This document shows, piece after piece, positions 9,344 to 51,599 of a stretch of DNA of 64,000 nt (position 1 is the stretch's first letter; each line of letters begins with the position of its first letter). The position numbers were made by a program, and so were the translations under genes. This DNA comes from Phytohabitans houttuyneae (GTDB lineage Bacteria; Actinomycetota; Actinomycetes; Mycobacteriales; Micromonosporaceae). Where the stretch lies: positions 744,001 through 808,000 of the forward strand of contig NZ_BLPF01000003.1 in the NCBI RefSeq assembly GCF_011764425.1. Reading direction: 5' to 3'. Below the pieces are notes generated by a model. It searched no databases and was not told the origin of the DNA. It worked only from the letters and a program-made list of their open reading frames with translations.

Positions 9344-10120
9344 TCAGTCGGGTAGTGCGATGAGCGAGGTGTGGTCGTCGGCGGGTAGGTCGCCGTCGGT
9401 GGCGGCGGTGATCTGTTGTTCGACCGGGTTCAGCGTGCCGGTGAGCGTGGTGGAGAAGGCGACATCGGCCGCGTCCCGGCCGGTCGCGATGCGGGCCAGC
9501 GTGCCGCGCGGTGCCAGGCGGGTGGCGTCCCATATCCACCAACGGCCGTCGAGTGCGGTTTCGGTGACCAGGTGGAAGTCCATGGGGTCGAGGCCGGCGG
9601 CGTAGACGGCGACCACCCGGGCTGGTATGCCGACCGCGCGGCACAGCGCGGCGACCAGGTGTGCGTAGTCGCGGCACACTCCTTGGCCCGACAGCAGTGT
9701 GTCCACGGCGTCCGTGGTGGGTCCGCTGGTCGCAGGGGTGTACGACAGGTGTCGATGCACGTGTGCCTCGATAGCGCGCACGGCGTCAGCTTGGGGGAGT
9801 GCGCCGAACCTGTCGGTGGCGTATCCGGCGAGCCGGTCGGACGGGCAGTAGCGGCTGGGGCGCAGCGCCACGAGCCGCTGGTGTTCGGTCAGTGGCGCGG
9901 GCGGCTGGCGGCGGTCCGGCAGCTCTGCGCTGTAGGTGACGACGAGCCGTCCCGACCCTACGCGTACCAGATGGGTGCGGTCGACGGCCGTGGCGGCGAC
10001 GTCCGCCCCGTCGAGCGTGACGGTGAGCTGCTCGGAGGTGACCGGGCCGGCGACAGCCACCTGGAAGGCGACCTCCGCTGGCCCGTCGACCTCGTACGAC
10101 AGGGTGGTGGCGACCCGCAT
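9344..10120 (-). CDS. Transglutaminase-like protein
   Basis: About 258 residues. N-terminal beta domain (Bact_transglu_N-like) followed by a transglutaminase core with the papain-like triad: Cys in GQGVCRDYAHL (about 149), His in DFHLVTE (about 183) and Asp in WWIWDATR (about 198). Such proteins are cysteine peptidases or amidases rather than true transglutaminases; no signal peptide is seen, so it is probably cytoplasmic. A GTG 24 nt upstream (10144) is an alternative start. It is downstream of the FAD oxidoreductase on the same strand, gap about 50 nt. The molecular substrate is unknown. Confidence 0.85.
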   Translation of the reverse strand: MRVATTLSYEVDGPAEVAFQVAVAGPVTSEQLTVTLDGADVAATAVDRTHLVRVGSGRLVVTYSAELPDRRQPPAPLTEHQRLVALRPSRYCPSDRLAGYATDRFGALPQADAVRAIEAHVHRHLSYTPATSGPTTDAVDTLLSGQGVCRDYAHLVAALCRAVGIPARVVAVYAAGLDPMDFHLVTETALDGRWWIWDATRLAPRGTLARIATGRDAADVAFSTTLTGTLNPVEQQITAATDGDLPADDHTSLIALPD

Positions 10121-10173
10121 GCCGCCATTGTCGAGCCGCCGCACGCCGTCCGCACTCCGGCAACGGCTCGGGT

Positions 10174-11355
10174 TTACTCAGGAGGGCGGGGTGCGGCGAG
10201 TCCGTTGCGCGGTGAGCGAGCGGGCACTGCGCGGACTGGACCGTCGCTGAGCGGTGGGTCGACCGTGGGAAACGAGCGGTCGCCGAACAGGATCCGCGCC
10301 GCCATCGCACGACCGGCACGGCCGCGCAGCAGGGCCACCGCCGCTTCCGCCGCGGCGGGGGATCGGATGCCGGCGAAGGTGCGGCGCAACAGCAGCCGGC
10401 CGCGAAATCGGGCCCGCAGCGCGTCTCCCGAGTACTGGTCCAACACTCGCTGGTCGCCGGTGCGCAGGTAGGCGGCGGCCACTGCCGCGGCCAGCTCGGA
10501 CATGCGCAGGCAGGGGTCCAACCCGCCGGCCGTCAGCGGCGACACCGCGCCCGCCGCGTCGCCGACGAGCAGCCCGGCGGGGCACGCCAGCCGCCGCAGC
10601 ACACCGCCGATCGGGATCGGACCGCCCCGGCGCTCGATCGGGCCGCTCGGCGCCGCGCGGCCGGGAGCGTCCACTGTGAACGCGTCCAGCAGGTGGCGGA
10701 TACCGGCGCGCATCGCGTGCGGATATCCGGCGACGCCGACGTGCGCGTGCCGGCCGTCGTCGATGACCCAGCCCAGGTACCCGGGCGCGAACCGGGGGTC
10801 GAGTACACAGTGGAAGGCCGGCAGGGTCGTGCCCGGCGCGACCGGGTGGACGATCTCGGCACCGACGAGGAAGCGCCGGTTGACATCGAGGCCGAGCTCG
10901 CGGGCCACGCGGGAGCGGGCGCCGTCCGCGCCGACGACGAACCGCACTGTCACCGGCTCCGCGTCCGCGAACCGCGCCAGGCCCGCCGACCCGCCGGTGT
11001 ACCGCACTCCGAGCAGGACCCGCGCTCCGGCCGACTGCGCCGCGCGATACGCGTGCTGGTAGACGGCCGCCATGTCGGCCACCCGGTACTCGTCCCGGTC
11101 GCTGGTGAGCCGGATCGGCGCCCGCCGGGACGGCGGATACAACAGCATGTCCCGGACACCGGGGCCGAGGAGGTGGTCCGGCAGGTCGAAGTCGTCGAGG
11201 GTGCGGCGCACGAAGATCCCCGTCGTACGGATGCCGGCCGACAGCGACCTGCGGCGGTCGACCACCAGCACATCAAGGCCCTGCGCCGCCAACAGGCGGC
11301 CGGTGTGCAACCCGGCCAGGCCGGCACCCACCACCAGTACATCAACGGTCCGCAC
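10174..11355 (-). CDS. FAD-dependent oxidoreductase, geranylgeranyl-reductase-like
   Basis: 393 residues from GTG 11355, chosen because the dinucleotide-binding motif DVLVVGAGLAGLHTG starts immediately after it. A second FAD motif, GADGARSRVARELGL, lies mid-protein, and the ribose-binding GDAAGAVSPLTAGG is near residue 280. This set is typical of the p-hydroxybenzoate hydroxylase fold and particularly of the geranylgeranyl reductase/lycopene cyclase-like branch. There is no membrane anchor. It precedes the transglutaminase-like gene on the same strand. Role uncertain: isoprenoid reduction or a small-molecule hydroxylation are both possible. Confidence 0.8.
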   Translation of the reverse strand: MRTVDVLVVGAGLAGLHTGRLLAAQGLDVLVVDRRRSLSAGIRTTGIFVRRTLDDFDLPDHLLGPGVRDMLLYPPSRRAPIRLTSDRDEYRVADMAAVYQHAYRAAQSAGARVLLGVRYTGGSAGLARFADAEPVTVRFVVGADGARSRVARELGLDVNRRFLVGAEIVHPVAPGTTLPAFHCVLDPRFAPGYLGWVIDDGRHAHVGVAGYPHAMRAGIRHLLDAFTVDAPGRAAPSGPIERRGGPIPIGGVLRRLACPAGLLVGDAAGAVSPLTAGGLDPCLRMSELAAAVAAAYLRTGDQRVLDQYSGDALRARFRGRLLLRRTFAGIRSPAAAEAAVALLRGRAGRAMAARILFGDRSFPTVDPPLSDGPVRAVPARSPRNGLAAPRPPE

Positions 11356-11577
11356 ACGCCCGACGCTAGAAGGCGACACCCGGCCACACCACGATCGGCA
11401 CACAACCCACCCGGTACCTTCACACCCCCGCCACACCTCAAACCGTGACACCCGGTCGTGCGCACGGCAGGTCGATCGCGCTGTCCAGTTCCGTGAAGCC
11501 GGTTTGAAGCCGCCCTATGTTCGGATCCCTTCGTCGGCTGCGGATCGCCGCGCCACGGGGAGACGGGGAAAATCTCG

Positions 11578-14500
11578 ATGCGAACCCTCTTGAGTGGACT
11601 CGCCGCCGTGCTGGCGGTGGTGGGGGTCCTTGTTGTACCGGCGCCTCCGCCGGCAAGCGCCGCGCCGCAGCCTCCGGCGGCGAAGGCGGCGACGTCCGTG
11701 GCGGCCGCTCCGATCTGCTCGCCGTACCTGGTGATCGGCGTGCGCGGCTCGGGTGAGGACAAGGTGGGGCCGTTCGGGTTCGGGCACCGCGCCGGGGCGT
11801 ACGCCCAGGCGGCCTCCAACGCGCTACCCGCTGTCGATACGCGTTACCACACGCTCGACTACGCGGCCGCACCCGTGACCAACCCGCTCACCTGGTGGGG
11901 CTCGGCGACCAGGGGCGCGGAGCTGCTGGTGAGCCTCGTGTACGAGATGGTCAGCTCCTGCCCCGGGATCCGGATCGGCCTGATGGGCTACTCGCAGGGC
12001 GCATATGTGATCAACCTTGCCCTCAGGCTGATGTCCGCCGATGCGCGGAACTCGGTGCGTGCGGTGCTGCTCCTCGCCGATCCGATCAGCTGGGGACGCT
12101 CCAACTACAGCAAGTGGCTGGAGGAAGGGGGCAGTCCGGGCAGCGCCTACCGGCAGGGCCACGGCATGCTCGGCAGAGAGATCATCCCCTCGGACATCGA
12201 GTGGCGCACGACCGACTTTTGCATCGTCGAAGACAAGGTGTGCAACTCACGATCGTCCAACACGCTGTGGAACGCGTTGTCGGCGTTGATGAACCAGCGG
12301 GTGCACAAGGAGGGCTACACGGTCTGCTGCGGCCACCGGAACTACCGCGCCTACCTCGGCGGCGAGTTCGCCACGCGGCTGCTGGGGCAGCTGGGGTACG
12401 GGCGGCCGGCACCGCCGGAGATACCGGCGCCGCCAACAGGCCCGCCGCCGGTCACCTCGGTCAACGGGTTGGCGGACGGCACCGTCCTCGTCACCTCGGA
12501 CACCGGCCGGGTGTACCGGATGGTGGGCGGGGCACCGATCTGGATCTCCAGTTGCGCGAACAACCTCTGCCCTAACCCTCGCCCCACCACGCAGGCGGTG
12601 ATCAACGCGGGTCCGGCCGTGCCGCGGGACGCCGCCACCGCCTCGGACGAGGCGGGCAACGTCTTCAAGTTTGTCGGTGGGGCGCCCATCCACCTGTCCA
12701 GCTGCTCGGTGGGATGCGGCAGCCCGGTGCCGATCACCGCCAGCAGCATCGTCAACTACGACCACATGCGCCCGAAACCCGCCGACGGCGCCACCGCCAA
12801 GGACGAGGCGGGCAACGTCTTCAAGTTTGTCGGTGGGGCGCCCATCCACCTGTCCAGCTGCTCGGTCGGATGCGGTACCCCCGTGCCGATCACGGCGTGG
12901 AGCGTCGCCACCTACGAGCACATGCGTCCGGTACCTGCCGACGGGGCGACCGCCAAGGACGAGGCGGGCAACGTCTTCAAGTTTGTCGGTGGGGCGCCCA
13001 TCCACCTGTCCAGCTGCTCGGTCGGGTGCGGCAACCCGGTGCCGGTCACCGGGTGGAGCATCGCGACGCTGGAGCACATGAGCGCCGTGCCGGACGACGG
13101 CTCGACCATCCGGGACGAGGCCGGCAACATCTTCAAGTTTGCCGGCGGCGCCCCGATCTTGCTCGCCTCCTGCGCCGTCGGCTGCGGTAACCCCGTGCCC
13201 ATCACCGGGTGGAGCGTCGCGACGCTGGAGCACATGAAGCCGGTACCCGACGACGGTACGACGATCGTGAGCGAGACCGGCGACACGTACGTCTTCGCCG
13301 GCGGCGCGCCGCTGCGCGTGCCGGACTGTCAGGTCAGCTGCGACACGATGGTCCGGATCAGCGGCGCCAGCGTCGCCAACCTCGACCACATGCGGGCGGT
13401 ACCCGCCGACCACGCGACGGTGCGGACCGAGACCGGCGCGGTGTACAAGTTTGCCGGCGGCGCACCGCTGTGGCTGTCCGACTGCGCCTCCGGGTGCGGC
13501 GATCCGGCCGAGGTGACACAGTGGACGATCGACACCCGTGAACACATGCACCGGCTGCCCGTCGACGCCACCAACCTGCGGGCGGTGGAGACCGGCACGC
13601 TGTACCGTACCCGCGGAGGTGAGGCCGACCTGGCCGGGCAGTGCCCGGCCGAGACCGGCTGCGCCAACGCGGTGGCCGTCAACCAGAAGTCCGTCGACTC
13701 GATCGCCCACGGCGTCGCCAACCGCGGCCCCGCCTACGGCGTGCTCTCCCGCTACTTCAACGGTGTGGACCACTTCACGACCGTCGGCGGCGTGCCCGCC
13801 GGCTACCGCCTGGAGTACGCCTTCGGGCTGCTCGCCCGCACCGCCGAGCCCGGCACCGTGCCGCTGTACGCCTGCCGGCTGGGCACCGACACCTTCAGCT
13901 CCACGTCGTCCACATGCGAGGGTCAGACCGTCGTCGGGTACCTCGGCCACATCTACGCCGCGGCACCGGCCGACCAGGCGGCGATCGCGCTGTACCGGTG
14001 CATCGCCCCCGGCGGTGGGCACTTCGACTCGCTCAGCTCCACGTGTGAGGGCAAGACGGTGGAGTTCCGGCTCGGGTTCGTGCCGGCGCTGGCACCGCTG
14101 ACCCGCTACTTCGACGGCACCGACCACAACACCACGACCGCGGGCGTCCCAGCCGGCCACCAGCCAGAGTGGACACTCGGTATGCTCTCGCTGGTATCGC
14201 AGCCCGGCACGCTTCCCCTCTACTCGTGCCAGAACGGGTCGGACACGTTCCTGGCGCGGGACGCCGCCTGCGAGGGCAAGCAGGTGGTGCGCCACCTCGG
14301 GTACATCTACACGGCGCCGCCGGCGGGCTGGCCGTCAATCGAGCTCTTCCGCTGCATGACCGCGACCGGGGAGCACTTCGACTCGATCAGCGCGACCTGT
14401 GAGGGCAAGACGGTCGAGCGCTCGCTCGGCCACCTCGTGGCCCGGACCCTGCTGACCCGCGCGATGCGCGGCTCCGACCACCGCACCAGCGCCGGCATCT

Positions 14501-14811
14501 ACCCCGCCGGCTATCGACACGAGCACACGTTCGGCTACCTCTCCGCGGTCAGCGAGGCGGGCACCCGCCCGCTGTACTCCTGCCTGCTCAACGGCACCGA
14601 CTCGTTCACCTCCGCGGCCGCCGACTGCGAAGGGCGCGAGGTGCTCGGGAGGATGGGGTGGATCTGGCAGCAGCCACCGGCGGACGGTCCCTCGGCGGCA
14701 CTGTACCGGTGCACGGTCAGCGGCACCGCCGAGCACTTCGACTCCGTCAGCGCCACCTGCGAGGGGCACAACACCGAGTTCCTCCTCGGGTACGTGCGGG
14801 TGCGGCCGTGA
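11578..14811 (+). CDS. Secreted cutinase-fold protein with 52-residue repeats and CEG modules
   Basis: 1077 residues with a signal peptide (about 1-29, cleavage after ASA). Residues 45-270 form a cutinase-like alpha/beta hydrolase: GVRGSG oxyanion region, nucleophile elbow GYSQG with Ser139, and a probable Asp near 219 (IVEDKVC). Next come eight tandem repeats of about 52 residues (about 290-715) with a core of [14 protein letters not shown] and two Cys each. The C-terminus (720-1077) has three copies of a roughly 120-residue module with motifs RYFxGxDH, PLYxC and HFDSxSxTCEG. The esterase would act outside the cell on polymer or lipid esters; the repeats may form a propeller or bind surface glycans (inference). 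A good ribosome site (GGGGA) precedes ATG 11578. The 3' end overlaps the next secreted gene by 4 nt. Confidence 0.85.
12646..13022 (+). repeat. Three near-identical 65-bp DNA units at exactly 156-bp period
   Basis: The segments at 12646-12710, 12802-12866 and 12958-13022 are essentially identical at the DNA level and begin GACGAGGCGGGCAACG. The spacing is 156 bp, or 52 codons, matching the protein repeat. Flanking repeats have diverged in DNA but not in pattern, so this block has been recently duplicated or homogenised by gene conversion. Confidence 0.9.
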
Positions 14812-16367
14812 GGCGGCTGGCCGCGGTGGTCGCCGCCGCCCTCCTCGCCACCGTTGGACCCGCGCCGGCGCGAGCGGCGGCCGACGCGGTGCCCTACCCG
14901 GAGCGCGACGGGTACCGGATCAAGGCGATCCAGCCGGACGCCTGGCCGGACAAGGCGGAGATCGCCGGCAACAACACCGGTGGCGTGGCGATGAACCTGG
15001 TCTGGGCGCAGTGGCAGCCGACCCGCAAGGCGGCACCCTGCGCGGCGGGGGAGGAGACCTACGACGGGTACTGCTTCGCGGTGCCCGCCGAGGTGGACGC
15101 CGACATCGCGGACTGGACCGCGCGGGGCCTGGCGGTCACGTCCGTCGTCTACGGCGTGCCGGCCTGGGCGCGGCACGACAAGGTGTGCTCGCCGGTCGCG
15201 CCGGGGTTCGACATCTTCTGCACGCCGAACGACCCCGCCGACTACGGCCGCTTCGCCGGCATGCTCGCCAGGCGGTACAACGGCCTTGGCGGCCACGGCC
15301 GGATCGCCGACTTCGTCGTGATGAACGAGGTCAACTCCAACGCGTGGTTCGACATCGGCTGCGGCGGCGGCGTGGCCTGTGACGTCGACGCCTGGCTCGA
15401 CGAGATCGCCGGCACCTACAGCGCCGCCTACGACAGGGTGATCGCCGAGCAGCCGACCGCCAAGGTGCTCATCTCGCTGGACCACCAGTTCGGCGCCGCA
15501 CTCCAGCGCCCCACCGCGTCCGACGCCACGCTCGCCGGCGAGACGGTACTGCGCGGGCTGGCCGACCGGGCCGGCGACCGGGCGTGGCGTGTCGCGTTCC
15601 ACCCGTACCCGAAGAACCTGCGCGACCCCGCCTCCAGCCCGGACGACTACCCGCACGTCACCTACGGCAACATCGGCGTGCTCGCCGGCTGGCTGCGCGC
15701 CACCTTCCCCACCCGGCCGCACACCTGGGACATCCAGCTCACGGAGAGCGGCCTCAGCTCGGCCGCGCCCTCCACCCCACAGCGGCAGGCGGCCGCCGTC
15801 TGCGACTCCTTCCGCAACGTGCTGGGCACCCCGGGGATCAGCAACTACGTGTACCACCGGATGCGCGACCACCCCGACGAGGTGGCCAGCGGGCTCGCGC
15901 TCGGCCTGCGCAACCCCGATGGCACGGCCAAGCCCGCGTGGAGCACCTGGGCTCTCGCCAACCGCAACGACCTGACGCCGCCGAGGCTTTCCTGCGGTTT
16001 CGAGTCACTGCCACACACCCGGCTCGTTCGCGGCTACAACCCCGCGCGCGGGCACTGGGCCTCGTCACGGCTGCTGCCGGCCGGCTTCACCGCCGAACGC
16101 TCGTGGCGGCTCTGGCGCGACCAGGTCGCGGGCACGGTCCCGCTCTTCGAGTGCAAGGTCGGGGGGCACAACCTGCTCACCCGGGCCGCGGGCTGCGAGG
16201 GGCAGGCTCCGCTCGGCCCGGTCGGGCACGTCCACACCCAGCCGGTGGCCGGCACGGCACCCCTGTACCGCTGTCTCGTCCCCGGCAACGGCGACCACTT
16301 CGTCTCCAGCAGCGCCACCTGCGAAGGGCAGCGCACGGAAGGCCTGCTCGGCTACGCGCTGCCCTGA
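14808..16367 (+). CDS. Secreted TIM-barrel glycosidase-like protein with one CEG module
   Basis: 519 residues from GTG 14808, which overlaps the previous stop (GTGA). Signal peptide about 1-25 ([22 protein letters not shown]). The body (30-395) resembles glycoside-hydrolase clan A or DUF5722-type barrels: alternating beta/alpha segments, [12 protein letters not shown] with a candidate acid/base Glu after a beta-strand and [12 protein letters not shown] with a candidate nucleophile Glu. The C-terminus (about 400-519) is a single copy of the module found three times in the preceding protein ([26 protein letters not shown]). Shared modules and translational coupling indicate that both proteins act on the same extracellular target. 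The enzyme class is inferred, not proven. Confidence 0.75.
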
Positions 16368-20696: not shown

Positions 20697-21689
20697 ATGA
20701 GTGCAGCTTCCCGGCGGGGAACCCCGGTCGTCCGTGAAGAAGACGCTCCGCTGCGGCCGCACGAGCAGGTTCAGGCCTTCCTGGACAGCTCCGTATCATC
20801 ACCCGACCCGTGGGCCGCCGACATCGCGGCCGTGCGGGCGGACGCACGTGCGAAGGTCCTGGCCGTGACGGGCGAGCCGGCGCCGGTGGCCTCAGTCGAG
20901 TCGGTTGACGCGGACGGCGTACCGGCTCGGCTCTACCGGCCCACGGGCGCGGAACGTGAAGTCCTGGTCTGGGCGCACGGCGGCGGCTGGATTCACGGAG
21001 ACCTCGACACCGCCGACGGCGTCTGCCGGGCACTCGCGAACCGGGCCGCGTGCGCCGTCCTGTCCATCGACTACCGGCTCGCGCCCGAGCACCCGTTTCC
21101 AGCCGGCTTTGACGACATGTGGACGGCCGTCACCTGGGCACGCGACAACTTCGGCAGCGTGGCTGTCGGTGGGGACAGTTCGGGCGGCAATCTCGCCGCG
21201 GCGGTCGCGCTCAAAGCGCGTGATGAAGGCGTTCGGTTGGCCGCCCAACTCCTCGTCTACCCGGCACTCGACAGCGTCGAGAACACCGACTACAAGGTCG
21301 CGTTCCGGCGGAGGTACGAGACCTTCGCGGGCCAGTCGGGTTTCGGCTCCAACAGCTACCAACGGCTCCAGTACATCTGGGCGACGTACGTTCCCGACCC
21401 AGCACACCGCAAGGCGTCGTACGTATCCCCGCTGCACGCTGAATCTGTGCGCGGTGTCGCGCCTGCGATGATCATCACGGCCGAGCACGATTTCCTCCGC
21501 CGCGAGGCCGAGGACTATGCCCGGCGTCTGGAGGCGGCCGGCGTGCCGGTCGAGCTGACCGAGTACGTGGGGCAGATCCATGGCTTCTTCGAGATGTTCG
21601 CCGTGATGACCGACGCGCATCACGCCGTTGGCAAGGCTGGCGACGCCGTACGCCGCGCGTTCCAGTCAACCCACACCATCGAGCCTTAA
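20697..21689 (+). CDS. Alpha/beta hydrolase, hormone-sensitive-lipase type esterase
   Basis: 330 residues from ATG 20697. HSL-family signature: HGGGW oxyanion motif (about residue 94), catalytic Ser in GDSSGG (about 161), Asp in the TAEHDFL segment and His in GQIHGFF. There is no signal peptide, so it acts in the cytoplasm, probably on acylated sugars or short-chain esters brought in by the importer that follows 9 nt downstream. It is the first gene of the operon controlled by the divergent TetR regulator. Confidence 0.92.
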   Translation: MSAASRRGTPVVREEDAPLRPHEQVQAFLDSSVSSPDPWAADIAAVRADARAKVLAVTGEPAPVASVESVDADGVPARLYRPTGAEREVLVWAHGGGWIHGDLDTADGVCRALANRAACAVLSIDYRLAPEHPFPAGFDDMWTAVTWARDNFGSVAVGGDSSGGNLAAAVALKARDEGVRLAAQLLVYPALDSVENTDYKVAFRRRYETFAGQSGFGSNSYQRLQYIWATYVPDPAHRKASYVSPLHAESVRGVAPAMIITAEHDFLRREAEDYARRLEAAGVPVELTEYVGQIHGFFEMFAVMTDAHHAVGKAGDAVRRAFQSTHTIEP

Positions 21690-21698
21690 GGACTTCTC

Positions 21699-23057
21699 GT
21701 GCGATCACCGACCCAGTACCGCGGAACCCTCCGGGCGGCCGCCGTCGCCGCGGCGGCTGCCCTGCTGCTGGCCGCCTGCGCACCCGGCGGCAACTCCGAA
21801 GCCGGCCCGGCGCCGTCCAAGCCGGTCTCCACCGGTATCGGCAGCGAACCGGTCACCCTGAAGCTGCTCGTCACCAGCGGCGTCGACGTCCCGTTCTACA
21901 CCGCTCTCGGCAAGCTTTTCCACGCCAAGTACAGCAACGTGACCGTCGAGGTGGAGAACCAGGACTACGCCACCTTGACCACGACCATCGCGCGTACCCT
22001 CGCCGGGAACAACGTGCCCGACCTCGTCCGCGTGCCGCAGCTCGGCAACCTGACCAAGGACCACCTGCTGATCAGCCTCGACCCGTATGCGGAGGCGTAC
22101 GGGTGGAACGAGTGGCCGCAGTCGCAGTTCGCCTCCACCCGTGTCGCGGCGGACGGCAGACAGCGGGGGACGGGCTCGTTGTACGCCGCGGGCGCTGGTT
22201 TTGGCCTGACCGGGGTGTATTACAACAAGGCGCTTGCGCAGCGGATTGGTATGACGCGGCCACCGGCGACTGTCGCCGAGTTCGAGCAGTTGCTCGCCAA
22301 GGCGAAGGACGCCGGGCTGCAGCCGATCATGATCAACGGCAAGGACGGCGGCAGCGTCTATCCGTTGCAGAACCTGGCGATGTCGTCCGCCGGCGACGCG
22401 CAAGCCGTCCAGGACTGGAACTACAGCAAGCCCGGCGCGAGTATCGACACGGCGGCGACGGTCAAGGCCGCCACGACACTGCAACGCTGGGGGCAGGCGG
22501 GATACCTGCCGGCCGACGTGAACGACATCGACCAGACCCGGGCGCCGGCCGAGTTCATCAAAGGCAACGGTGTGTTCTTCCCGAGCGGCAACTGGCAGGC
22601 TCCGGGACTCGACAAGGCCGGATCCGGTCAGTTCGGGTTTTTCCTGTTCCCGCCCGGCGTTGCCGGTGGGCCGTCGTACGCGATGACCGCTGCCGCCAAC
22701 CTAGGGATCCCGGCGAAGTCACCCAACGCAGACGTGGCGGCCGCGTTCCTGGACTTCGTGCAGACGGACCAGCAGGCGCGGCAGGAGACGGTGGCGCTCG
22801 GCGGGCTGGTGCCGGCGGGCCCGTCGGACGCGCCAGCGCCGACCGCGCCCGAAGGGTCGGCGGTCGCCGCCACCGTCAGCGCGTTCCAGGAGGTGCTGAA
22901 GAACAACGGGCTGGTTGGCTTCATGGCTGACGCGACGGCTTCGATCCACGTCAACAGCCTCATCCCGCAAACGCAGCTCCTGCTGGCCGGCAAGACCACG
23001 CCCGAGGCGTTCGCGGCCAAGGTGCAGTCCGACTACGAGCGCGATCTCGGGCAATGA
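21699..23057 (+). CDS. Sugar-type ABC transporter substrate-binding lipoprotein
   Basis: 452 residues from GTG 21699 with AAGGA upstream. Signal peptide with lipobox LLAAC (Cys27), so it is lipid-anchored outside the membrane. Family 1 solute-binding fold: LFHAKYSNVTVEVENQDY, GVYYNKALAQRIGM, then the FEQLLAKAKDAGLQPIM and NGVFFPSGNWQAP segments typical of oligosaccharide binders. It overlaps the first permease by 4 nt. The ligand cannot be read from sequence; the esterase partner suggests an ester-decorated saccharide. Confidence 0.92.
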   Translation: MRSPTQYRGTLRAAAVAAAAALLLAACAPGGNSEAGPAPSKPVSTGIGSEPVTLKLLVTSGVDVPFYTALGKLFHAKYSNVTVEVENQDYATLTTTIARTLAGNNVPDLVRVPQLGNLTKDHLLISLDPYAEAYGWNEWPQSQFASTRVAADGRQRGTGSLYAAGAGFGLTGVYYNKALAQRIGMTRPPATVAEFEQLLAKAKDAGLQPIMINGKDGGSVYPLQNLAMSSAGDAQAVQDWNYSKPGASIDTAATVKAATTLQRWGQAGYLPADVNDIDQTRAPAEFIKGNGVFFPSGNWQAPGLDKAGSGQFGFFLFPPGVAGGPSYAMTAAANLGIPAKSPNADVAAAFLDFVQTDQQARQETVALGGLVPAGPSDAPAPTAPEGSAVAATVSAFQEVLKNNGLVGFMADATASIHVNSLIPQTQLLLAGKTTPEAFAAKVQSDYERDLGQ

Positions 23058-24043
23058 TCGCGGCGAGCCGACCCAGGGGTGATGCGGTGCCGTCCGTCTC
23101 GACCCCGCACGCTCCGGCGATGACCGACCCGTCGAGCGTTCCCGCGGCGCGACAACCCGCCGCACGGCGCCCATCCGCGCGCCGGCGGCGGAGGTGGAGC
23201 GCGCTCCTCTGGGTTGCGCCAGCGTTCGGTATGTACGGCGTTTTCGTGCTGTTCCCGATGCTCCAGTCCGTGCAGTACTCGTTCTACGACTGGGATGGCA
23301 TCGGCCCCGCGACGCCTGCCGGACTGGACAACTGGAAAGCGATCTTCACCCAGCCGGAGCTGCTGCAATCCGTGGTGCACGCGTTCGTGCTCGTCCTGTT
23401 CTACACGGTCCTGCCGGTCGGGCTCGGTCTGGTCGCCGCGTCGCTCATCCGCGAACTGAAGCCCGGCGCGTTCAGCACCACCGCCCGGGTCGTACTGTTC
23501 GTCCCGCAGGTGCTTCCGCTGGTCGCGGCCGGTATCGCGTGGACGTGGATGTACTCCTCGGACGGCCTTGTCAATCAGGTCATGCGCGCGGTCGGCCTCG
23601 ATCAGTACACACGGGCCTGGCTCGGTGACTTCACTTTCGCTCTGCCCGCCGTCGGTGTGATCGGGGTCTGGGTCATGCTCGGCTTCTGCACGGTGCTGCT
23701 GCTCGCGGGCATCGGCAAGATCGACCCGGTGCTGTACGAGGCGGCCCGACTGGACGGGGCAGGGCCGGTCAGGGAGTTCTTCGCCGTGACGCTGCCCGGG
23801 TTGCGGCGCGAGCTCGCCGTGTGCACGACGTTCACGATCATCGCCGCGCTGGCGAGCTTCGACGTCGTCCAGATCGCGACGCAAGGCGGCCCCGGCTACC
23901 AGACGATGGTGCCCGGCGTGCAGATCTACCGGTTGACGTTCCTGCAGCAGCACGTCGGCCAGGCCTCGGCGCTCGCGGTGTTCCTGGCCGTCCTCGTGCT
24001 GGTGGTCATCTGGCCGATCCAGCGTCTCGGGAGGGAGAAATGA
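23054..24043 (+). CDS. ABC transporter permease (MalF type)
   Basis: 329 residues; ATGA overlap with the binding protein. Cytoplasmic basic N-terminus (to about 45) then six predicted membrane helices. The coupling loop EAA motif reads YEAARLDGAGPVREFF, as expected for carbohydrate importers of the CUT1 class. Partner of the following permease; no ATPase gene is present in the window, so a shared MsiK-type ATPase encoded elsewhere is likely (established for actinobacterial CUT1 systems). Confidence 0.93.
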   Translation: MIAASRPRGDAVPSVSTPHAPAMTDPSSVPAARQPAARRPSARRRRRWSALLWVAPAFGMYGVFVLFPMLQSVQYSFYDWDGIGPATPAGLDNWKAIFTQPELLQSVVHAFVLVLFYTVLPVGLGLVAASLIRELKPGAFSTTARVVLFVPQVLPLVAAGIAWTWMYSSDGLVNQVMRAVGLDQYTRAWLGDFTFALPAVGVIGVWVMLGFCTVLLLAGIGKIDPVLYEAARLDGAGPVREFFAVTLPGLRRELAVCTTFTIIAALASFDVVQIATQGGPGYQTMVPGVQIYRLTFLQQHVGQASALAVFLAVLVLVVIWPIQRLGREK

Positions 24044-24864
24044 CCACATCGGGCCTCGCCCATCGCGTAACGCGCACCGGTATCCTGCTCGCGCTGATGC
24101 TGTTCGCCGTGGTGCCGCTGCTGAGCATGTTCACCACGGCACTGGCGGCGCCGGGCAGCACGCCGCAAGGCCTCAGCTGGCCCAGCGACCCGCACTGGCA
24201 CAACTTCGTCGACGCCTGGAGCGCGGCGAACTTCGTCGCGCTGTTTCGCTCCAGCACCCTTATCGTGCTCGGCGTCGTACCGGCCACGGTCGCGATGGCC
24301 ACCGCCGCGGGCTACGCCCTCGCTCAACTGAACGTGCCCTTCGGTAAGGCGATCTACGGTTTTCTCCTCATCGGACTCACCCTGCCGTTCGAGGCGCTGA
24401 TCACCCCGTTGTACTACGACCTGCGCAGCATGGGACTGCTCGGGACGCGGCTGGCGATCGTCCTGCCACTCATCGGACTGCTCATGCCGTTCGGCGTCTT
24501 CTGGATGCGCGCACACTTCCTCGGCGCCGAGCCCGCGATCACCGAAGCCGCGAAAGTCGACGGCGCCAACACCTGGCAGACGTTCCGCCGCATCCACCTG
24601 CCGCTCGCCACCTCGGCGTGGTCCGCACTATCCGTGCTCTTCTTCCTCGCCAGCTGGAACCAGTACCTGCTGCCCCTCGTCCTCGTCGACGACCCGACGA
24701 AGCGGACCGTGGCCGGCGGGTTAGGCGCCTTCCAGGGCCAGTACGGCACCGACATCGTGCTGCTCTGCGCCGGATCCCTGCTGATCATCCTGCCCTCGCT
24801 GGTGATCTTCCTGATCTTCCAGCGCAACTTCGTCAAGGCGCTGATGCAGGGAGCCGTCAAGTGA
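24040..24864 (+). CDS. ABC transporter permease (MalG type)
   Basis: 274 residues from ATG 24040, overlapping the previous stop by 4 nt and preceded by GGGAGGG. Six membrane helices; EAA motif ITEAAKVDGANTWQTF in the loop before helix 5. Last gene of the esterase-importer operon. The C-terminal RNFVKALMQGAVK is typical of MalG proteins. Confidence 0.93.
   Translation: MTTSGLAHRVTRTGILLALMLFAVVPLLSMFTTALAAPGSTPQGLSWPSDPHWHNFVDAWSAANFVALFRSSTLIVLGVVPATVAMATAAGYALAQLNVPFGKAIYGFLLIGLTLPFEALITPLYYDLRSMGLLGTRLAIVLPLIGLLMPFGVFWMRAHFLGAEPAITEAAKVDGANTWQTFRRIHLPLATSAWSALSVLFFLASWNQYLLPLVLVDDPTKRTVAGGLGAFQGQYGTDIVLLCAGSLLIILPSLVIFLIFQRNFVKALMQGAVK

Positions 24865-48330: not shown

Positions 48331-51599
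<3,269 letters not shown>

What the first reader, a model, noticed from the sequence alone, without database searches (positions are those of the whole stretch)
11578..16367. Two-gene secreted system built on a shared CEG module
A cutinase-fold protein with eight 52-residue Cys-paired repeats and three CEG modules is translationally coupled to a TIM-barrel glycosidase-like protein with one copy of the same module. Eight repeats of about 52 residues could fold as a propeller. A paired esterase and glycosidase sharing an apparent anchoring or binding module looks like a dedicated, possibly undescribed, polymer-degrading or host-surface system. Repeats and modules are directly visible; function is inference.
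Basis: partly seen in the sequence, partly recalled or inferred. Interest (0 to 1): 0.8.

Follow-up and report, generated by a model that had tools for sequence, protein, structure and literature searches.

The report
Secreted enzyme pair with swappable heads
Two neighbouring genes of a soil actinobacterium encode a secreted esterase and a probable sugar-cutting enzyme that share a sugar-binding-like module; in some relatives the esterase part is replaced by toxin-like parts, so this may be a targeted attack kit rather than a simple polymer digester.

Summary
Gene A (11578-14811) is a cutinase-family esterase (triad Ser139/Asp219/His243) with eight ~52-residue Cys-paired GGAP repeats, the eighth degenerate, and three CEG modules. 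Gene B (14808-16367, GTG start, 4-nt overlap) is a DUF5722 protein with two invariant Glu and one CEG module.

The propeller idea is not supported: copy number differs widely between relatives and AlphaFold gives no confident fold. The CEG module is a compact threefold domain distantly resembling DUF5648 (10 of 27 modules hit it weakly, none over its cut-off), proposed to bind glycans in antibacterial toxins.

The pair recurs, but re-headed. Catenulispora rubra has the same pair. In four Nonomuraea a gene-B homologue lies beside a GGAP array headed by an aerolysin-like domain (weak evidence); two more array loci have unassigned heads. In one genome the array ends in a CdiA_C nuclease domain, followed by an immunity-like ORF and gene B. 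In 61 relatives, 11 of 20 CEG-bearing genes directly precede RHS genes. Other gene-B homologues stand alone or near rhamnosidase loci.

Best reading: a surface-targeted secreted effector pair with interchangeable effectors, probably for antagonism. Function is inferred; polymer digestion is a serious rival.

The parts
11578..14811 (+). Gene A: secreted cutinase + 8 GGAP repeats + 3 CEG modules, 1077 aa
   Evidence: open frame and translation; Pfam
11578..11664 (+). signal-peptide-like N-terminus of gene A, about residues 1-29
   Evidence: read from the translation by eye; no predictor was run
11716..12306 (+). cutinase domain with triad Ser139 (11992-11994), Asp219 (12232-12234), His243 (12304-12306)
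   Evidence: Pfam PF01083 E 4.6e-17 over residues 47-226; triad placed by alignment with four other cutinase domains, one of which ends before the His
12403..12450 (+). proline-rich linker
   Evidence: sequence
12469..13713 (+). eight GGAP repeats of about 52 aa, starting near 12469, 12619, 12775, 12931, 13087, 13243, 13399 and 13558; two Cys each, the eighth degenerate
   Evidence: tandem repeats
13738..14091 (+). CEG module 1
   Evidence: model
14092..14445 (+). CEG module 2
   Evidence: model
14446..14808 (+). CEG module 3
   Evidence: model
14808..14811 (+). GTGA overlap: GTG start of gene B and TGA stop of gene A
   Evidence: sequence
14808..16367 (+). Gene B: secreted DUF5722 protein + 1 CEG module, 519 aa
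   Evidence: translation; Pfam PF18989 E 1.2e-35 over residues 149-384; signal-like start by eye
15327..15746 (+). stretch between two candidate catalytic Glu of gene B: E174 of NE (15327-15329) and E313 of LTE (15744-15746)
   Evidence: invariant in 15 of 15 aligned sequences, window included, and in alignment A7 of 12
16014..16364 (+). CEG module of gene B

Best explanation
The two genes encode a co-secreted, surface-targeted effector pair. Gene A is a modular secreted protein: an N-terminal effector (here a cutinase-type esterase, perhaps acting on lipid or polyester), a GGAP-repeat stalk, and three CEG modules that bind surface glycans. Gene B is a glycosidase-like enzyme with the same CEG module, which would cut the glycan coat at the same surface. 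The GGAP-array protein belongs to a family in which the effector is interchangeable (cutinase, aerolysin-like domain, CdiA_C nuclease with an immunity-like gene) while a gene-B partner is kept. The most likely use is antagonism against other microbes or cells. Shown: architectures, recurrent pairing, changed head domains, CEG modules next to RHS genes. Inferred: secretion, enzymatic activities, glycan binding, target and purpose.
For: Same pair with the same architecture in Catenulispora rubra, GGAP region 65% identical in its best segment. A pattern scan with the GGAP alignment (genome contigs, close relatives only) gave 22 loci; 7 of 22 have a gene-B homologue adjacent: L104, L108 (truncated copy), L110, L115, L116, L122, L123. 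Four of these (L110, L115, L116, L122) share an N-terminal domain by profile (E 1e-28 or better; L110 and L115 were profile seeds). The alignment profile of such N-terminal domains plus two repeats weakly finds parasporin-2 (E 0.038) and monalysin (0.13) in the PDB. The L110 model (domain blocks at pLDDT 56-85) draws toxin folds that I recall as aerolysin-like in 49 of the 50 Foldseek rows shown (best E 4.7e-3) and VIA-align Z up to 7.3. In G811 the array ends in CdiA_C PF18451 (E 1.3e-9, over its cut-off), then a 128-aa ORF one nucleotide after the stop, then the gene-B homologue. Of 20 CEG-bearing genes in 61 relatives, 11 are directly followed on the same strand by an RHS-like gene and one is divergent from one (Pfam). 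In G854 a two-CEG gene, an RHS gene and a gene-B homologue lie in a row. The CEG model (mostly pLDDT 80-95) shows three strands times three per module, as told for DUF5648, a proposed glycan-binding domain of antibacterial BSAP toxins (passages of PMC11299179 and PMC12853789).
Against: In the window there is no C-terminal toxin domain and no immunity gene: gene B overlaps the end of gene A. Seven of nine gene-B loci found by gene B alone lack a GGAP neighbour; three of them sit by LacI, GH78 rhamnosidase and ABC-transporter-like genes. In the window itself a solute-binding protein and two permease genes of an ABC transporter start 5.3 kb downstream of gene B, and a GH10-GH62 gene lies 33 kb away. 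CEG modules also occur on subtilases. The aerolysin-like assignment is weak: no Foldseek E below 1e-3, Z under 8 (which the tool warns may mean only a common arrangement), one model. The heads of L123 and L108 match neither N-domain profile. The nuclease version is a single case, and its immunity-like ORF has a slightly negative codon score in its own frame. No single CEG module reaches the DUF5648 cut-off. Cutinases are ordinary secreted hydrolases.
Confidence: 0.44

Rival explanations
1. Secreted polymer-degrading pair: the cutinase cleaves ester bonds (cutin, suberin, acylated polysaccharide or lipid) and gene B cuts the accompanying glycan; CEG modules are ordinary substrate-binding modules.
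For: Cutinase with intact triad; gene-B homologues beside LacI + GH78 alpha-L-rhamnosidase + ABC-transporter-like genes in G800, G845 and G762 (Pfam on LacI of G800 and GH78 of G800 and G845; the rest by eye) and about 7 kb from a GH67 gene in G540; an ABC transporter 5.3 kb downstream and a GH10-GH62 gene 33 kb downstream of the pair in the window; CEG modules on subtilases; DUF5648 also occurs on GH70 enzymes (PMC11299179, passages).
Against: Beside some gene-B homologues the esterase is replaced by aerolysin-like or nuclease domains, which do not digest polymers. CEG modules are commonest before RHS genes. One split of the tree (99/95) separates the rhamnosidase-linked gene-B sequences plus G452 from all GGAP- and RHS-linked ones.
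Confidence: 0.36
2. Self-directed cell-envelope or spore-coat remodelling: GGAP and CEG bind the producer's own wall, and cutinase and glycosidase remodel its surface lipids and glycans.
For: GGAP-like repeats in other actinobacteria are fused to a CAP domain (L040) and, by eye, to amidase-, serine-hydrolase- and subtilase-like domains, some of which could act on cell walls; LGFP repeats of similar length on mycoloyltransferase MytA interact with the wall (as told in PMC11299179).
Against: GGAP profile does not align with LGFP; gene B is rare (4 of 300 and 5 of 200 genomes), unlike a housekeeping wall enzyme.
Confidence: 0.12
3. Chance neighbours: two secreted proteins that share a promiscuous module and lie together without a joint role.
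For: Both modules are promiscuous and gene B often stands elsewhere.
Against: The same pair in Catenulispora rubra, and gene B next to GGAP arrays in 7 of 22 array loci and 2 of 9 loci found by gene B, although gene B occurs in only 4 of 300 and 5 of 200 genomes searched.
Confidence: 0.08

Closest known systems
Cutinase family (PF01083)
   Same: Gene A residues 47-226 match over the Pfam cut-off; GYSQG Ser, Asp and His in place
   Different: Carries eight GGAP repeats and three CEG modules; whether this architecture is in print was searched only by one listing (cutinase + Micromonosporaceae). Own genome has a cutinase + FG-GAP paralogue
DUF5722 (PF18989)
   Same: Gene B residues 149-384 match, E 1.2e-35, over cut-off
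   Different: Pfam gives no function and no held paper names the family; gene B adds a CEG module
DUF5648 (PF18885), (beta3-alpha)3 three-bladed domain
   Same: Threefold unit with strands b1-b2-turn-b3, HF(D/Y)(S/T) and EG...GY patterns (pattern by eye); 10 of 27 CEG modules hit it weakly, no other family more than one
   Different: CEG has invariant Cys, no long helix, and no single module reaches the cut-off; profile-profile match is poor (E 0.006, probability 6%)
RHS/YD-repeat polymorphic toxin loci
   Same: CEG-bearing partner genes lie directly before RHS genes; a CdiA_C domain and immunity-like ORF occur in one GGAP-array relative
   Different: Gene A has no RHS match, no C-terminal toxin domain and no immunity gene
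BSAP antibacterial pore-forming toxins of Bacteroidales
   Same: Effector plus C-terminal DUF5648-type receptor-binding domain for surface glycans (PMC12853789, one passage)
   Different: BSAP effectors are MACPF-type (recalled); here a cutinase, and the binding domain is only distantly DUF5648-like
LGFP repeats (PF08310), about 54 aa
   Same: Repeat length, actinobacterial secreted proteins, attached to a mycoloyltransferase (MytA; PMC11299179 passage)
   Different: No significant profile similarity

Membership tests
Cutinase PF01083 | match over curated cut-off | tested here: met
   62.9 bits against 25.9
Cutinase PF01083 | Ser-Asp-His triad | tested here: met
   S139, D219, H243; Ser and Asp shared by all five aligned cutinase domains, His by four (the L030 slice ends before it)
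Cutinase PF01083 | esterase activity on cutin or other esters | not testable with these tools
   needs enzyme assay
DUF5722 PF18989 | match over curated cut-off | tested here: met
   123.6 bits against 30.5
Glycoside hydrolase (clan GH-A type) | acid/base and nucleophile Glu in a TIM barrel | tested here: inconclusive
   E174 and E313 invariant in 15 of 15; their roles are recalled motif knowledge; fold not predicted; no PDB relative by profile
DUF5648 PF18885 | match over curated cut-off | tested here: not met
   10 of 27 modules hit weakly, best E 0.0025, weaker than the 19.2 bits (E 0.0015, cut-off 25) of the whole L036 protein; first window module no hit
DUF5648 PF18885 | three beta3-alpha sub-units around an axis | tested here: inconclusive
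   Model of modules shows three strands times three with only short turns in place of the helix, pLDDT mostly 80-95; not superposed on a DUF5648 model
Polymorphic toxin system | variable effector domain on a conserved carrier | tested here: inconclusive
   cutinase (2 loci), a shared aerolysin-like domain (4), CdiA_C (1) and unassigned heads (2) on GGAP arrays beside gene-B homologues; the variation is real, but toxin nature is shown only for CdiA_C, by family match
Polymorphic toxin system | C-terminal toxin domain in gene A | tested here: not met
   gene A ends in CEG module 3
Polymorphic toxin system | adjacent immunity gene in the window | tested here: not met
   gene B overlaps gene A directly
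LGFP repeat PF08310 | profile similarity | tested here: inconclusive
   hhalign probability 0.6 and 1.7%; fold not comparable because the GGAP model is poor
Beta-propeller | closed ring of blades | tested here: inconclusive
   low-confidence model; copy number from 7 to 13 among apparently full-length array proteins of one group argues against one closed ring
Aerolysin superfamily (Nonomuraea N-terminal domain only) | fold similarity | tested here: inconclusive
   Foldseek best E 4.7e-3, VIA Z up to 7.3, PDB profile E 0.038

The most novel reading that the evidence does not exclude
An undescribed actinobacterial secreted effector platform: a GGAP-repeat carrier whose effector is exchanged (cutinase/lipase, aerolysin-like domain, CdiA-type nuclease with immunity), coupled to a dedicated glycosidase that bears the same glycan-binding CEG module as the cutinase carrier and as RHS-toxin partner proteins. 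The glycosidase would cut through the target's glycan coat for the effector.
Probability: 0.38. Interest if true: 0.78.

Novelty: new variant of a known kind. Interest (0 to 1): 0.6.

Why it matters
It joins three unexplained things: a repeat family without a Pfam or NCBIfam match in gene A, a CEG module that marks RHS-toxin partner genes, and the function-unknown DUF5722 family. If true, it gives a testable idea of how actinobacterial secreted toxins find and enter glycan-covered targets, and a handle (the CEG and GGAP profiles) for finding more such loci. Even if the pair only digests polymers, it is an unusual cutinase plus glycosidase architecture.

Tried and rejected
Propeller: not supported. 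LGFP kinship: hhalign negative; an iterated LGFP search also drew in the G040 cutinase loci (L010, L030), but Pfam at E 0.05 did not list LGFP there, so no claim is made. CEG versus DUF5648 by hhalign with only four DUF5648 sequences was weak; one extraction before that used wrong frames and was discarded. PDB searches with CEG, GGAP and gene-B profiles found no credible relative. NCBIfam had nothing credible for genes A and B; it confirmed only the RHS protein of G854, with the TafC hit of L136 far below its cut-off. Weak Pfam and NCBIfam hits inside GGAR-type repeats (DUF3809, Cpn60, DUF7887, Cas2e and the like) were taken as spurious, although DUF3809 (L110, L120) and DUF7887 (L114) passed their cut-offs. 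A short gene-B match in G024 contig 26 (residues 2-55, E 3.1e-4) was fetched and could not be reproduced with tblastn, so it is not counted. Papers: none in the held library for DUF5722 or for 'polymorphic toxin' + aerolysin + Actinobacteria; three for DUF5648, one for PF18885; a letter search for VGGAP/IAGGAP/GGAP repeat gave 24 papers, 20 listed, none on this repeat by title. The results were seen as listings; passages were read in PMC12853789, PMC11299179, PMC13379245, PMC3482391 and PMC13018210.

Full report
WHAT IS THERE. Gene A (window 11578-14811) reads as a signal-peptide-like start, a Cutinase domain (residues 47-226, E 4.6e-17), a proline-rich linker, eight GGAP repeats and three CEG modules. 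Gene B starts at GTG 14808 and its first four bases overlap the end of gene A (GTGA). It reads 519 aa: a signal-like start, a DUF5722 match (E 1.2e-35) and one CEG module. The repeats are also visible in DNA as a 156-bp period. Neither GGAP nor CEG is matched by a Pfam or NCBIfam family in these two proteins. Candidate catalytic residues are in place: Ser139, Asp219, His243 in A; Glu174 and Glu313 in B, invariant in 15 of 15 aligned sequences.

WHERE IT COMES FROM. The window's genome is 11.3 Mb in 5 contigs. Its congener G001 contig C449 has the length (98736) and gene arrangement of a contig of Micromonospora sp. CPCC 205371, which the tree tool places in Micromonosporaceae.

THE PAIR IN RELATIVES. 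Searching by gene B: the barrel part was found in 3 of 61 close relatives (own, G001, G040), 4 of 300 genomes of the family (own, G001, G452, G540) and 5 of 200 genomes of the family of Planomonospora (G762, G800, G811, G845, G854), that is nine distinct loci besides the window. In a sample of 394 genomes of the class, the two hits at 1e-30 were the own gene and one that covers only the CEG end. Of the nine loci, two adjoin a GGAP array (G001, G811), one lies in a row with a two-CEG gene and an RHS gene (G854), three lie beside LacI, GH78 and ABC-transporter-like genes (G762, G800, G845), one is about 7 kb from a GH67 gene (G540), and two have no telling neighbour (G040, G452). Searching by the GGAP array (alignment A3, genome contigs, a pattern scan for close relatives) gave 22 loci. 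Seven have a gene-B homologue adjacent: Catenulispora rubra L104, Nonomuraea L108 (only a truncated, frame-broken piece), L110, L115, L116, L122, and Micromonospora L123, which is G001 again and has the reverse order. Catenulispora has the same architecture on both proteins.

THE HEAD CHANGES. In L110, L115, L116 and L122 the array follows a shared N-terminal domain: a profile of five Nonomuraea sequences, L110 and L115 among them, finds L116 (E 9e-65) and L122 (E 2e-29). L123 and L108 match neither this profile nor that of a second group, so their heads are unassigned. The first two GGAP repeats are strikingly conserved behind these divergent heads. AlphaFold on alignment A5 (16 rows, first L110) gives long strands (28-49, 115-140, 143-169), domain blocks at pLDDT 56-85. 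Of the 50 Foldseek rows shown (434 matches at E up to 10), 49 are botulinum haemagglutinin HA70/HA3, C. perfringens enterotoxin or epsilon toxin, lamprey immune protein, Dln1, monalysin or lysenin, which I recall as aerolysin-like folds; none is below E 1e-3. VIA-align gives up to Z 7.3 (rmsd 5.7, 124 residues) to the same kind of protein, with 88 of 990 chains at Z 2 or more. A profile search of PDB sequences, independent of the model, gives parasporin-2 (0.038) and monalysin (0.13). Together this is suggestive, not proof. In G811 the array protein has another N-terminus and ends in a CdiA_C domain (PF18451, 38.5 bits against a cut-off of 26.6). A 128-aa ORF starts one nucleotide after its stop; its codon score is slightly negative (-4) but far above the other two frames (-53, -85), and it has no family match. 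It looks like an immunity gene; that is inference from position.

THE CEG MODULE. In 61 relatives 20 genes carry CEG modules (counted by hand). Eleven carry two modules and are followed on the same strand by an RHS-like gene with no same-strand gene called between them (L031, L033, L034, L035, L155-L161; in L156 one 44-codon call on the other strand lies in the gap). One (L028: FG-GAP, GGAP and three CEG) is divergent from an RHS gene; three are subtilases (L037, L038, and L042 which is cut at a contig end and matches weakly); three are gene-B homologues, the window's included; one is gene A; one is unclassified (L036). Pfam confirmed RHS_repeat in five of the RHS neighbours and SpvB starts in three more, and LamG domains in the four two-CEG proteins of this set that were scanned. 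Ten of 27 modules hit DUF5648 weakly, while no other family hit more than one. The model of gene A residues 286-1077 gives the modules mostly pLDDT 80-95 and three strands per sub-unit, three sub-units per module, the topology told for DUF5648 in PMC11299179 (passages read) apart from the helix. PMC12853789 (one passage read) describes DUF5648 in C-terminal domains of antibacterial toxins, likely for O-antigen glycans. Membership fails the Pfam cut-off, so CEG is called DUF5648-like only. For toxins with adhesion domains in general, PMC3482391 (passages read) notes laminin-G and lectin domains.

THE GGAP REPEAT. Related repeats of roughly 50-61 residues occur in other actinobacteria on a CAP domain (Pfam) and, by reading the sequences, on amidase-, serine-hydrolase- and subtilase-like proteins. 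Copy number by the iterated profile is 7 to 13 among array proteins of the window's kind that appear full length, and down to 3 in others (3 was the display limit; the counts depend on the profile, G811 giving 8 or 12). The model is poor (pLDDT 25-64), showing only short strands and in some units a helix. A stalk is more likely than a closed ring, but this is open. No relation to LGFP was detected.

NEIGHBOURHOOD IN THE WINDOW. No immunity-like or RHS gene was seen next to the pair. Upstream lie a transglutaminase-like and an FAD-dependent protein on the other strand; downstream an S4-domain and an OmdA/YdeI-type gene, then 5.3 kb from gene B a solute-binding protein and two permease genes of an ABC transporter, and far off a GH10-GH62 gene. 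The transporter would suit a polysaccharide-use reading, though it is not adjacent.

TREE. Gene-B sequences (15 rows) show one well-supported split (99/95) between the three rhamnosidase-linked sequences plus G452 and all the rest, which holds every GGAP- and RHS-linked sequence plus the solo G040 and G540. The root is at the midpoint, so direction cannot be told.

JUDGEMENT. A secreted, surface-targeted effector pair with interchangeable effectors explains most of the neighbourhood data of relatives. The window's own version has an esterase as effector and lacks an immunity gene, so polymer digestion remains a serious rival. All functions are inferred from sequence.

Noticed in passing
L041:5650-7233 (own genome, G000:C2): A second cutinase of the same genome is fused to FG-GAP repeats, another cutinase-plus-repeat architecture.
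   Followed up: no
L093:3-5849 and L093:6093-9260 (G467; same locus as L106, Asanoa ishikariensis): A GGAP + FG-GAP array protein lies divergently next to a SpvB/TcdB/RHS-type gene.
   Followed up: partly
L133, L134, L135 (G800, G845, G762): Gene-B homologues sit beside LacI-type regulator, GH78 rhamnosidase and ABC-transporter-like genes, suggesting a rhamnose-containing glycan as substrate of that branch.
   Followed up: partly
L105-L123, first two GGAP repeats: The first two repeats are far more conserved between species than the N-terminal domain in front of them, hinting at a binding or processing role.
   Followed up: no
L028:5077-9648 (G001:C471): A 1523-aa protein combines FG-GAP, GGAP repeats and three CEG modules and is divergent from an RHS gene.
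   Followed up: partly
G000:C3:1450230-1450496 (outside the window): The own genome also has a DUF5648 domain over the Pfam cut-off.
   Followed up: no
window 9344-10144 (-) and 10174-11451 (-): Upstream neighbours are a transglutaminase-like protein and an FAD-dependent oxidoreductase; no visible link to the pair.
   Followed up: no
window 20832-24864 (+): An alpha/beta hydrolase, a solute-binding protein and two ABC permease genes lie in a row, 4.5 to 8.5 kb downstream of gene B.
   Followed up: partly
window 49224-51599 (+): A GH10 xylanase with ricin-type lectin and GH62 domains.
   Followed up: no
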